Below, in pieces: positions 2,783-4,938 of a stretch of 5,067 bases of DNA. A model generated the notes under the pieces. The model worked only from the letters and a program-made list of their open reading frames with translations. It did no database searches and was not told the origin of the DNA. The position numbers and the translations under genes are program-made. Source of the DNA: Verrucomicrobiia bacterium (GTDB lineage: Bacteria > Verrucomicrobiota > Verrucomicrobiae > Limisphaerales > UBA11358). Location: contig JASHZU010000332.1 of assembly GCA_030042375.1 (NCBI GenBank), forward strand, positions 1 through 5,067. The letters are read 5' to 3'. How positions within the stretch are numbered: the stretch's first letter is position 1; the number at the start of each line of letters is the position of its first letter.

Positions 2783-2803
2783 TATTACCTGCGGCAGGTA
2801 ATA
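2783..2803. promoter_or_regulatory. Perfect palindrome, operator or leader hairpin
   Basis: The arms TATTACCTG (2783-2791) and CAGGTAATA (2795-2803) are exact reverse complements of 9 bases around a CGG spacer. The element ends 13 bases before the GTG at 2817 and 6 bases before the AGGGGGAG tract. As DNA it looks like a dimeric regulator's operator. As RNA it would form a 9-bp hairpin with a 3-base loop next to the ribosome binding site. There is no T tract after it, so it is not a typical terminator. The regulator is unknown. Confidence 0.6.
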
Positions 2804-2816
2804 ACCTTCAGGGGGA

Positions 2817-4190
2817 GTGAAGCTGCCATGTGAAGAGTCAAGCCAGACAACTAAATTTATGAATGTTACAGCACTTGATGAAAATGGCAGGGCAGTTGAT
2901 TGGTTCTTTATTTATAAAGTTCCCCAGCTATCCAAGGGGGCGACCACCGATAAGGCGACTGGCTATGAATATGTCTATTACGATGCAACCATTGACACGC
3001 TGGAACCTGTCAAACGGGTCATTGACAAATCGCCATATGTTTTGAACAGCGACCAGGGCGCGCTGAACCAAACACTGGATTTGGTGTTCAAAAAGCCCGA
3101 CGACACGACCGGCTGGATTTTGTACAATGACGAGAGGCCGGGTGATATTCCTGGCAAGGACAACGGCGCCCTGGGCCACACGAAAGGCGTGCTGGCGTTT
3201 GATACGAAGACCAAAACAGGTTTCTGGCTGTTGCACTCATGGCCAAAGTTCACCGACCCCGAAGAGAAATCGGACCCGACGCCGAAGTACGGGCAAACCT
3301 ATCTCTGCTTGTCACTCGATTTGGCCACAATTGAAAAAATTGCGAACCAGATGATCGATCACCAGCAACCGCAGGTGTATAACAATCCCAAGGAGGGACC
3401 CAGGCTGGGCGGTTTGGACAAAACGGACCCAACCAATCCAATTGTTCAACTATCGAAGCAGGTTAACCTCACCGCCACTGGAAATGCCAGCGTGCTTGAA
3501 TTGCAAACGGCCGGTGTGAAACCGGCCAAAAGCATGAAGTTTATGGTCATCGCCAAAAACAAGGCGTGGAACCAGGATTTCTGGAATGGGTTGGTGGGGC
3601 CAACTTTGAAAGAGGATATGGATGTGGAAACGTGGATTCGCGGGCCGATTCCGCCGGTGGCGGATACAGACGGCATTCACAAGACGTTTGACATTAAGTA
3701 TATTAACCTGGGGGCATTGGGTATCCACATGGCCTGGCCGGAAACGCATGACCATGCCAAATGGGGAATCACCACCCATGAAGACTGGGTCTGTGTGGGA
3801 GATATCAACCGGATGATCTCCCAGCGCAAGCGGGGCGGCGGCACGATTGCGTTTCAAAACGAGACGTTATGGAATAACCTTTCCAAGACGGATTTGGTGC
3901 TGGCCCCTCCGGGGGTAACCCGTACTGATGCGCTGTCTCTGGTTCATCAGACCCACTATGATCCGGCGGATCAGCACGGGTCCTCGCCCCCGTCAAAGAT
4001 TGCCAGGATGGCCCATCTGCCGCCGCGAGGGGGAGCATCGTACCGTGGCCAGGAGAAGGATCCGTTGGTAGTTGCTAAAGATCATATTAAGCTTTCAAAG
4101 CCGCAGCCCCGGAAAAAGGCCCCGCGGAAAGCGCGAAAAAATAAACCATCAAAGTCACCGACCCCGAAGAAGGCTTCAGGGAAACCGTAA
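2817..4190 (+). CDS. DNase II family nuclease with basic C-terminal tail
   Basis: DNase II enzymes are metal-independent acid endonucleases with a phospholipase-D-like pseudodimer fold and one HxK motif per half. Both motifs are present: H121-T-K123 in LGHTKGVLAFD (human His115 region) and H313-A-K315 in HDHAKWGI (human His295 region). Other family blocks are DENGRAVDWFFIYKVP (21-36), LYNDERPG (102-109), GFWLLHSWPKF (135-145), YGQTYLCLSL (158-167) and WVCVGDINR...RGGGT (324-343). Numbering is from the GTG at 2817, which makes 457 residues; the animal enzyme is about 360. The extra length is C-terminal: about 345-427 is a linker of unknown role, and 428-457 has 10 Lys, 3 Arg, 7 Pro and no acidic residue. 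No signal peptide is seen. The start is uncertain: GTG 2817 has its purine tract only about 1 base away, and ATG 2859 begins right at the conserved domain but lacks an RBS. GC is low at the 5' end (28 of 80 in 2851-2930). The family call is firm; cellular role and activity are unknown. Confidence 0.9.
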   Translation: MKLPCEESSQTTKFMNVTALDENGRAVDWFFIYKVPQLSKGATTDKATGYEYVYYDATIDTLEPVKRVIDKSPYVLNSDQGALNQTLDLVFKKPDDTTGWILYNDERPGDIPGKDNGALGHTKGVLAFDTKTKTGFWLLHSWPKFTDPEEKSDPTPKYGQTYLCLSLDLATIEKIANQMIDHQQPQVYNNPKEGPRLGGLDKTDPTNPIVQLSKQVNLTATGNASVLELQTAGVKPAKSMKFMVIAKNKAWNQDFWNGLVGPTLKEDMDVETWIRGPIPPVADTDGIHKTFDIKYINLGALGIHMAWPETHDHAKWGITTHEDWVCVGDINRMISQRKRGGGTIAFQNETLWNNLSKTDLVLAPPGVTRTDALSLVHQTHYDPADQHGSSPPSKIARMAHLPPRGGASYRGQEKDPLVVAKDHIKLSKPQPRKKAPRKARKNKPSKSPTPKKASGKP

Positions 4191-4223: not shown

Positions 4224-4751
4224 TTATTCTTCTTCCCAAAGCGTCCGGCCCAGGCTGTTCCAGAGCGGTTTCAAGTCGGAATCCTCCCGGGCGATTTTTT
4301 TGACGGCCGCCTCATCAATGGCTGCCGCTTTTTTCAGCCATCGTTCCGCCTGTTCCATTTCCCCAAGCTGCGAACAGTAACAGGCCAGGTTGTAGGGAAA
4401 TAAATAATGCCCGGGAAACTTCGGCTCCGCGCCGAGGAGAATTTCCTTCGCCTCCGGAATGCCGCCGCCGGTTTTGCGTCGCGCGGCGTAGGCCAGGCTA
4501 ATCCAGGCAAAAGGCCGGTCGGGCAGCAGTTTCACCAGGTCATGAGCCACGCTTACCGCCTCGTCCCATTGCTTTGCCTGGGCATAAATCTGGTAGCGCA
4601 CCGACAGCACCGCGGGATGCGTCCGCTCGGCCGGGGAAATTTCCTTCAGCTCGTTATTTGCGGATTCCACATCGCCCAGGCCAAGCCATCCTTCGGCCGC
4701 CTGCAAATGAAAGCTGTCCGGCGCGTCCAACGGCTTGATGCTCTTTTTCAC
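4224..4751 (-). CDS. Small tetratricopeptide-repeat (TPR) protein
   Basis: This is a 175-residue helical-repeat protein made almost wholly of about four TPR units, at roughly 13-45, 46-79, 80-113 and 115-148. TPR-like positions are visible, such as GWLGLGDVESANNEL, YAQAKQWDEAVSVA and YNLACYCSQLGEMEQAERWLKKA. It ends DSDLKPLWNSL, a C-terminal cap I recall from small TPR proteins in Verrucomicrobia and Planctomycetes. TPRs are protein-interaction scaffolds; no catalytic domain, signal peptide or membrane segment is present, so a soluble cytoplasmic adaptor is the most one can say. I chose the GTG at 4751 (VKKSIKPLDAPDS), because related proteins begin a few residues before 'PLDAPDS'. The frame stays open to a GTG at 4814, adding 21 residues (VAEPFLKCPCYIPIPS...) that look non-coding. 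Neither start has a clear RBS. The gene converges with the DNase II gene, with 33 bases between the stops and no obvious shared terminator. Confidence 0.85.
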   Translation of the reverse strand: MKKSIKPLDAPDSFHLQAAEGWLGLGDVESANNELKEISPAERTHPAVLSVRYQIYAQAKQWDEAVSVAHDLVKLLPDRPFAWISLAYAARRKTGGGIPEAKEILLGAEPKFPGHYLFPYNLACYCSQLGEMEQAERWLKKAAAIDEAAVKKIAREDSDLKPLWNSLGRTLWEEE

Positions 4752-4938
4752 CTGCGCCCAAATGTCACTAGGAATGGGAATATAACAAGGACATTTTAAA
4801 AACGGCTCCGCCACAATCGCTCATGGGGATATTTGCATGCAGGGCAGAAATTAATGGCACACAAAATGCGGCATGTTACGACTGTGGACTCGTTTGTTTG
4901 GGGAGGCGCGGTCTTCGTAAATGAATTTGTTTTGAAGT

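What the first reader, a model, noticed from the sequence alone, without database searches (positions are those of the whole stretch)
2817..4190. A DNase II nuclease with both catalytic HxK motifs in a bacterial chromosome
Seen: co-linear DNase II blocks from DENGRAVDWF to RGGGT, with HTK (121-123) and HAK (313-315) in the right places. Known: DNase II is chiefly an animal lysosomal/apoptotic enzyme, and as I recall only scattered bacterial cases, such as Burkholderia pseudomallei, have been noted. Inference: an active, transferred nuclease whose bacterial role (DNA scavenging, toxin or effector, defence, predation) is undescribed.
Basis: partly seen in the sequence, partly recalled or inferred. 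Interest (0 to 1): 0.75.

Follow-up and report, generated by a model that had tools for sequence, protein, structure and literature searches.

The report
Bacterial acid DNase without export signal
A bacterium carries what looks like a genuine DNase II, the acid-working DNA-cutting enzyme best known from animal lysosomes, but in a form with no visible signal for leaving the cell, which suggests a stored nuclease that works only where it turns acidic.

Summary
The ORF is a DNase II (PF03265, E 5.5e-75) with both HxK motifs; its closest solved relative is the Burkholderia thailandensis enzyme (5i3e, E 1.8e-131), whose fold the predicted model matches (TM by target 0.88). The real start is probably ATG 2859, not GTG 2817. 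The family is not new: 1209 homologues, and species genomes labelled as seven phyla. The host is most likely a verrucomicrobium of the Pedosphaera order.

What looks unremarked is the anatomy. The clade starts at the enzyme fold, without a signal peptide in nearly all members read, and 40 of 110 tails are rich in Lys/Arg. A distant bacterial DNase II branch with leaders and 8-10 cysteines gives a contrast. In related loci a PF04185 hydrolase is often nearby (14 of 55). Two loci adjoin contractile-injection clusters; a plasmid copy lies by R-body genes. In one genus 13 of 14 DNase II genomes have a tube gene against 58 of 135 others, but these are not independent.

Best reading: a cytoplasmic, acid-switched nuclease kept as cargo or posthumous toxin (0.35). 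The window itself shows no delivery system.

The parts
2859..4190 (+). Leaderless DNase II, 443 aa, most likely start ATG 2859
   Evidence: PF03265 E 5.5e-75; 5i3e E 1.8e-131; homologue starts
2817..4190 (+).
   Evidence: alignment A1
3177..3185 (+). First catalytic motif H-T-K (H107, K109)
   Evidence: sequence; H and K invariant in 91 rows
3753..3761 (+). Second catalytic motif H-A-K (H299, K301)
   Evidence: sequence; H and K invariant in 91 rows
3969..4187 (+). C-terminal tail of 73 residues, 20 of them Lys/Arg, modelled with low confidence (10-residue means 51-62)
2783..2803 (.). 21-bp palindrome TATTACCTGC-G-GCAGGTAATA that starts 76 bases before ATG 2859: possible operator
   Evidence: not seen in the 160 bases upstream of 16 other DNase II genes checked

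Best explanation
The protein is a DNase II: a PLD-fold endonuclease that needs no metal and whose two HxK motifs make one active site. It belongs to a bacterial clade without a visible export signal, so it is made and kept in the cytoplasm, where near-neutral pH should hold it mostly idle. I infer that it acts when it reaches an acidic place with foreign DNA: either when a predator's food vacuole acidifies and the bacterium bursts, or when it is carried out by a contractile injection particle. The basic tail would hold it to DNA. Shown by computation: family, motifs, fold, lack of leader, tail, neighbour genes in relatives. By analogy with 5i3e: one active site. Inferred: activity, pH switch, delivery, target.
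For: Family and fold: (5i3e_B, TM by target 0.88, E 5.6e-44). Intact site: (120 of 120). No leader: in 98 of 120 homologues the start lies exactly 12 residues before VDW, and the most hydrophobic 11-mer of the first 25 residues scores at most 1.33 on the Kyte-Doolittle scale; on a wider stretch a distant DNase II branch (L071-L074) scores 2.1-2.9 and has 8-10 Cys, against 2 in the window. Basic tail: over 25% Lys/Arg in 40 of 110 homologues with tails of 15 or more residues. Neighbours: PF04185-type genes in 14 of 55 loci (13 by clustering, plus L045 by likeness to the second PF04185 gene of L042), immediately next door in 11; the N-termini I read show no leader by eye. Delivery systems: a contractile injection cluster beside DNase II in L042 (Pvc16, sheath, tube) and in L036 (DUF6519, Baseplate_J); PF06841 tube in 23 of 50 DNase II genomes (0 of 14 control genomes); in the genus of G014, a Mucilaginibacter, 13 of 14 with DNase II against 58 of 135 without (Fisher 2.9e-4); all 4 DNase II genomes of 301 in its family have the tube against 75 of 297. 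The Pedosphaera genome with the nearest named relative has a contractile injection cluster. In Burkholderia pyrrocinia the gene heads an operon-like row about 10 kb from RebB R-body genes; type 51 R-bodies unroll below pH 6.5 and the R-body toxin is unknown (PMC3583457, PMC13430693, passages).
Against: No delivery or immunity gene was recognised in the window. The N-terminus is ordered (means 96-98 for residues 1-20) and lacks the hydrophilic, disordered loading segment described for eCIS toxins (PMC11297309, passages). Of the 23 tube-bearing genomes only 2 have tube and DNase II within 30 kb; the rest lie on other contigs or over 1 Mb away. The nine loci of that genus that I read fall into about five gene-order groups, so the Fisher value overstates the link; one of the 14 hits (G653) is partial. 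Tube base rates are high: 71 of 149 in the genus, 79 of 301 in the family, 49 of 300 in the order of G026; and PF06841 also covers phage tubes. RebB is in only 4 of 50, T6SS VipB in 9 of 50. The one leaderless case in the order of G026, G026 itself, has no tube. Three loci (L009, L004, L016) have hydrophobic stretches (2.3-2.7) upstream of the fold if any start is allowed.
Confidence: 0.35

Rival explanations
1. Nutrient scavenging: the enzyme degrades extracellular or taken-up DNA for phosphate and purines, together with the neighbouring phosphoesterase and, in flavobacteria, a xanthine dehydrogenase.
For: In 7 of 55 loci (six Flavobacteriaceae, one Saprospiraceae) DNase II lies in a row with a molybdenum xanthine/aldehyde dehydrogenase-type protein and the PF04185 gene, and in five of them an XdhC-type gene follows (one member of each type was scanned).
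Against: No visible signal peptide and no known export route; an acidic optimum (recalled for the B. thailandensis enzyme) does not suit the cytoplasm; the five such loci put in the tree form one clade.
Confidence: 0.2
2. Suicide or anti-phage nuclease: it destroys the cell's own or invading DNA when the cytoplasm acidifies on membrane damage.
For: Predicted cytoplasmic location, basic tail, sporadic presence: 1 clear and 1 weak hit in 156 genomes of the Pedosphaera order, 4 of 301 in the family of G014.
Against: No PADLOC match for the three window proteins tested (DNase II, hydroxylase, TPR); by eye I saw no defence genes beside it in the loci read except a restriction-type cluster in L049.
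Confidence: 0.15
3. Another substrate: a PLD-fold phosphodiesterase that acts on RNA, nucleotides or phospholipid rather than on DNA.
For: PLD fold (weaker matches to TDP1, phosphatidylserine synthase, PLD3 and PLD4); a DNase II preparation also cut rRNA at pH 4-5 (PMC11430429, passages).
Against: Close match in sequence and fold to 5i3e, whose recombinant form is recalled to be an acid DNase.
Confidence: 0.15

Closest known systems
Burkholderia thailandensis DNase II (PDB 5i3e, 5unb)
   Same: Homology over the whole core (E 1.8e-131; Foldseek 56% identity, TM by target 0.88); both HxK motifs; the Met at chain position 9 aligns with Met 1 here.
   Different: The crystallised chain ends where the window's core ends; the window protein goes on for 73 residues, 20 of them Lys/Arg. 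Different phylum.
Animal lysosomal DNase II
   Same: PF03265 family and two HxK motifs; the acid, metal-free mechanism is assumed.
   Different: Animal enzymes have a signal peptide, disulphides and sugars (recalled); the window protein has no visible leader and two Cys.
Distant leader-bearing bacterial DNase II (L071-L074)
   Same: PF03265 at E 3.4e-17 to 3.8e-16.
   Different: Leader-like N-terminus and 8-10 Cys; L071 and L072, the two put in the tree, stand on a very long branch.
R-body killer systems (reb genes)
   Same: Acid-triggered release of an unknown toxin from an ingested bacterium (PMC3583457, PMC13430693, passages); reb genes near DNase II in B. pyrrocinia.
   Different: No reb gene found in the window; RebB in only 4 of 50 DNase II genomes.
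eCIS-associated toxins
   Same: Enzymes without Sec leader encoded near contractile particles; two DNase II loci adjoin such clusters.
   Different: No N-terminal loading-type segment (against PMC11297309); no such gene recognised in the window.

Membership tests
DNase II (PF03265) | Profile match over the whole domain | tested here: met
   E 5.5e-75, 253 bits against cut-off 23, profile 3-318 of 326
DNase II (PF03265) | Two HxK motifs | tested here: met
   HTK 107-109 and HAK 299-301; H and K invariant in 91 rows; both motifs in 120 of 120 listed homologues
DNase II (PF03265) | PLD-type fold with both motifs at one site | tested here: met
   Model mean pLDDT 81.8, best match 5i3e_B, TM by target 0.88, E 5.6e-44. 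Distances between the motifs were not measured; the meeting at one site rests on the match to 5i3e
DNase II (PF03265) | Metal-independent endonuclease activity at acid pH | not testable with these tools
   Needs an assay; recalled for the B. thailandensis homologue (paper not held)
Lysosomal (animal-type) DNase II | Signal peptide and route to an acidic compartment | tested here: not met
   Start lies 12 residues before the VDW motif; no hydrophobic leader. No trained signal-peptide predictor was at hand
eCIS-associated toxin | No Sec signal peptide | tested here: met
eCIS-associated toxin | Encoded in or near an eCIS locus | tested here: inconclusive
   Not in the 5 kb window; seen in L036 and L042 of 55 loci; the window's genome is not held
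eCIS-associated toxin | Hydrophilic disordered N-terminal loading segment | tested here: not met
   Residues 1-20 have mean pLDDT 96-98 and lie in the fold
R-body system component | reb genes nearby | tested here: not met
   tblastn with a RebB of L056 found none in the window or in L001-L055; present by L056
Known anti-phage defence | PADLOC model match | tested here: not met
   0 families for the window protein at E 0.01

The most novel reading that the evidence does not exclude
Leaderless bacterial DNase II is a widespread acid-armed weapon: a nuclease that is harmless at cytoplasmic pH and becomes active in the acidified vacuole of a eukaryotic predator after R-body-driven bursting, or in a cell reached by a contractile particle, often paired with a leaderless phospholipase-type enzyme. 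It would be a candidate for the unknown toxin of at least some R-body killers.
Probability: 0.15. Interest if true: 0.8.

Novelty: new member of a known kind. Interest (0 to 1): 0.42.

Why it matters
An acid nuclease that animals keep in lysosomes occurs in many bacteria in a form that does not seem to leave the cytoplasm by the usual route. If the acid switch is what makes that safe, it gives a simple logic for a stored anti-predator nuclease and a testable candidate for the unknown toxins of R-body and some contractile systems. If not, the gene still poses a clear question: what does an acid DNase do in a neutral cytoplasm?

Tried and rejected
Viral or phage origin: viral contigs gave 22 pattern matches and 0 confirmed relatives, phages none, plasmids one record. 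Type VI secretion as the common route: VipB in 9 of 50, not pursued. R-bodies as the general route: RebB in 4 of 50, with no base rate measured, so kept only as a special case. A co-occurrence test in the order of G026 (Burkholderiales by my own knowledge): only 1 of 300 genomes has the leaderless form, so no test was possible. Window gene order in relatives: 121 of 156 genomes of the Pedosphaera order match the window's SufD, some only as the SufB paralogue; in seven fetched stretches around sufD (L081-L087, some on short contigs) the hydroxylase, DNase II and TPR genes were not found, and L041 has DNase II without the other three. The first structure model, from 20 sequences, was poor (pLDDT 55.8) and was replaced by one from 91 (81.8). 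Branching against eukaryotic DNase II was not tested for lack of rows. Active-site distances were not measured.

Rows left out: one search used 50 of 55 loci (L015, L016, L031, L034 and L054 dropped as near-copies, because the tool takes 50). One search used 46 of 55 loci plus the window, L056, L071, L072 and 8 proteins. One search read 50 of 55 loci (L037, L038, L046, L047 and L051 did not fit the motif filter). In one search three open frames (L009, L004, L016) hold hydrophobic stretches of 2.3-2.7 upstream of the fold if the start is ignored; for L009 and L004 my ORF caller picked an upstream start, so a leader there is not excluded. The notebook entry ('no signal peptide in any', 'all homologues start there') is wider than these counts; the counts stand.

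Full report
Observation. The ORF at 2817-4190 on the + strand is open and codes for 457 residues from GTG or 443 from ATG 2859. Pfam gives one family, DNase_II PF03265, at E 5.5e-75 over profile positions 3-318 of 326. The only PDB sequence matched at E 0.1 or better is the putative deoxyribonuclease-2 of Burkholderia thailandensis, 5i3e/5unb, at E 1.8e-131. Chance is excluded.

Start. In 98 of 120 listed homologues the first residue lies exactly 12 residues before the VDW motif, which is where ATG 2859 lies, and the 20-row alignment agrees for most rows. I therefore prefer ATG 2859. By eye no clear ribosome-binding site precedes it.

Fold. A model from 91 aligned sequences reached mean pLDDT 81.8; 22 of the first 26 ten-residue blocks score 85 or more, and residues 351-443 score 49-62. 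The best PDB matches are three chains of the B. thailandensis enzyme (TM by target 0.85-0.88), followed at a distance by TDP1, phosphatidylserine synthase and PLD3/PLD4, that is, the PLD superfamily. The catalytic H and K pairs are invariant over the 91 rows. I did not measure atom distances; that the motifs meet at one site rests on the match to 5i3e.

Host and distribution. The window's other genes are sufD (126-1502, -), a fatty-acid-hydroxylase-type protein (1645-2460, +) and a TPR protein (4224-4814, -). The SufD product is 76% identical to the best of its hits in the order of a Pedosphaera MAG, and 81% over a 119-residue fragment in that MAG itself. The DNase II tree puts the window with the Pedosphaera copy (L041) and P0002 (support 99/96). 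The host is therefore most likely a verrucomicrobium of that order. In that order DNase II is rare: 2 of 156 genomes, one of them weak. It is also rare in the family of G014, Sphingobacteriaceae by label (4 of 301), and in the order of G026 (5 of 300, of which only G026 is of the leaderless clade); 0 of 14 control genomes have it. Across all sources the family is large: 1209 proteins at E 1e-3 or better among 5717 candidates, 120 of them listed, and 55 loci in species genomes. The 46 loci put in the tree carry labels of seven phyla, scattered on it. Labels of metagenome bins can be wrong and scatter is no proof of transfer, but rarity within groups and spread between them fit horizontal movement. 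None was confirmed in viral contigs or phages, one in plasmids.

No leader. In this clade the protein begins at the fold. Among the 120 homologues the most hydrophobic 11-residue stretch of the first 25 residues scores at most 1.33. Among the 50 of 55 loci that could be read, 40 have 40 or fewer open residues before the motif; in three (L009, L004, L016) hydrophobic stretches of 2.3-2.7 lie upstream if any start is allowed, so a leader there is not excluded. By contrast four proteins of a distant DNase II branch (L071-L074) have leader-like segments of 2.1-2.9 and 8-10 cysteines, against two cysteines in the window. So leaderlessness looks like a property of the clade and not of gene calling. 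No trained signal-peptide predictor was used.

Tail. After the core the window protein has 73 residues, 20 of them Lys or Arg. Tails with over 25% Lys/Arg occur in 40 of 110 homologues with tails of 15 or more residues. The others have shorter or less basic tails, so the tail is frequent but not general. DNA binding by it is inference.

Neighbours. The window's own neighbours are uninformative. In the 55 loci the commonest shared neighbour is a PF04185 phosphoesterase: 13 loci by clustering, 14 with L045, which has a relative of the second PF04185 gene of L042; it is immediately next door in 11 by my mechanical ORF caller. Six of these loci are close flavobacterial relatives. Of the members scanned, the domain starts at residue 16 in L025, 24 and 25 in L042, and 309 in L032 after an N-terminal part that shows no leader by eye. 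Another set, L048, L050, L051, L052 and the B. pyrrocinia plasmid L056, shares a row of DNase II, a 949-980-residue protein (weak phosphorylase-type match below cut-off in L048, called GTPase in L056), two related proteins (no Pfam match in L048), a metallophosphoesterase and a ferritin-like protein, with small changes of order in L052. Their DNase II copies sit in two places of the tree: L056 lies on the window's side. A DUF2278 protein follows DNase II in L011 (E 1.7e-51); in L036 the match is below cut-off (E 1.7e-4).

Delivery systems. L042 carries a PF04185 gene, DNase II and a second PF04185 gene in a row, then Pvc16, sheath and tube genes within about 9 kb downstream. L036 has baseplate-type genes starting about 3.5 kb downstream. 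The Pedosphaera MAG with the nearest named DNase II has a contig with CIS_tube, spike and gp25. PF06841 occurs in 23 of 50 DNase II genomes and in 0 of 14 controls, but only in G032 and G038 within 30 kb of DNase II; the rest lie on other contigs or over 1 Mb away. In the genus of G014, 14 of 149 genomes have DNase II (one hit partial) and 71 of 149 the tube; 13 of the 14 have both against 58 of the other 135 (Fisher one-sided 2.9e-4). The nine loci of this genus that I read fall into about five gene-order groups, so I treat this as suggestive. PF06841 also covers phage tubes, and base rates are substantial (79 of 301; 49 of 300). VipB (T6SS) is in 9 of 50, RebB in 4 of 50. In B. pyrrocinia the row that starts with DNase II ends about 1.6 kb before the first of four RebB genes, among which lie a Crp/Fnr and a sigma-70 gene; from DNase II itself it is about 10 kb.

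Interpretation. The enzyme of B. thailandensis is recalled to be active at low pH without metal (DOI 10.1093/nar/gkx222, not held; nothing of it was read). If this holds for the clade, the cytoplasm is a safe store and acid is the trigger. R-bodies extend at low pH in the food vacuole of paramecia, type 51 below pH 6.5, and the toxin is unknown (PMC3583457, PMC13430693, PMC8322103; passages). eCIS toxins are expected to lack Sec signals but to have a hydrophilic, disordered N-terminus (PMC11297309, passages), which this protein does not. In the main texts of two eCIS toxin surveys the word deoxyribonuclease occurs 0 times and DNase once each (PMC8213781, there in a reference; PMC11297309, place not shown). 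Searches for papers that join eCIS with DNase II or with phosphoesterase found none. I therefore favour an acid-switched stored nuclease with the route of release open, at 0.35, over scavenging (0.2), suicide or defence (0.15) and a different substrate (0.15).

Verdict. By sequence and fold, an intact DNase II of the known B. thailandensis type, in a further host group: a new member of a known kind. The unexplained part is a clade of presumed acid nucleases with no visible way out of the cell, which deserves tests but is not resolved here.

Noticed in passing
window 2783-2803: Perfect 10+1+10 palindrome TATTACCTGC-G-GCAGGTAATA, starting 76 bases before ATG 2859; no chance match in 200 shuffles of the window. 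The core pattern occurs in 1 of 90 fetched loci (L022 6460-6476, inside an ORF). Possibly an operator.
   Followed up: partly
L071-L074: A distant DNase II branch with leader-like N-termini and 8-10 cysteines, apparently an exported bacterial DNase II.
   Followed up: partly
L048 9986-19482, L050, L051, L052, L056 20001-29445: A shared gene row under labels of Acidobacteriota, Bacteroidota and Pseudomonadota: DNase II, a large protein with a weak phosphorylase match, two related unknown proteins, a metallophosphoesterase and a ferritin-like protein.
   Followed up: partly
L055 9009-14611 and L032 1810-6128: DNase II near proteins that look by eye like glutathione-synthesis enzymes, and near an unknown family of about 440 residues that also occurs in L046 and L047.
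   Followed up: no
L037 6851-7912: DNase II reading frame split between two frames in a betaproteobacterial bin; left as it is.
   Followed up: no
L051: The record is labelled Limnohabitans, but its DNase II groups with a Saprospiraceae copy and its gene row resembles L052; the bin label may be wrong.
   Followed up: no
L076 (G759): Weak PF03265 match (E 2.4e-9) in another genome of the Pedosphaera order, in an open frame of 466 residues.
   Followed up: no
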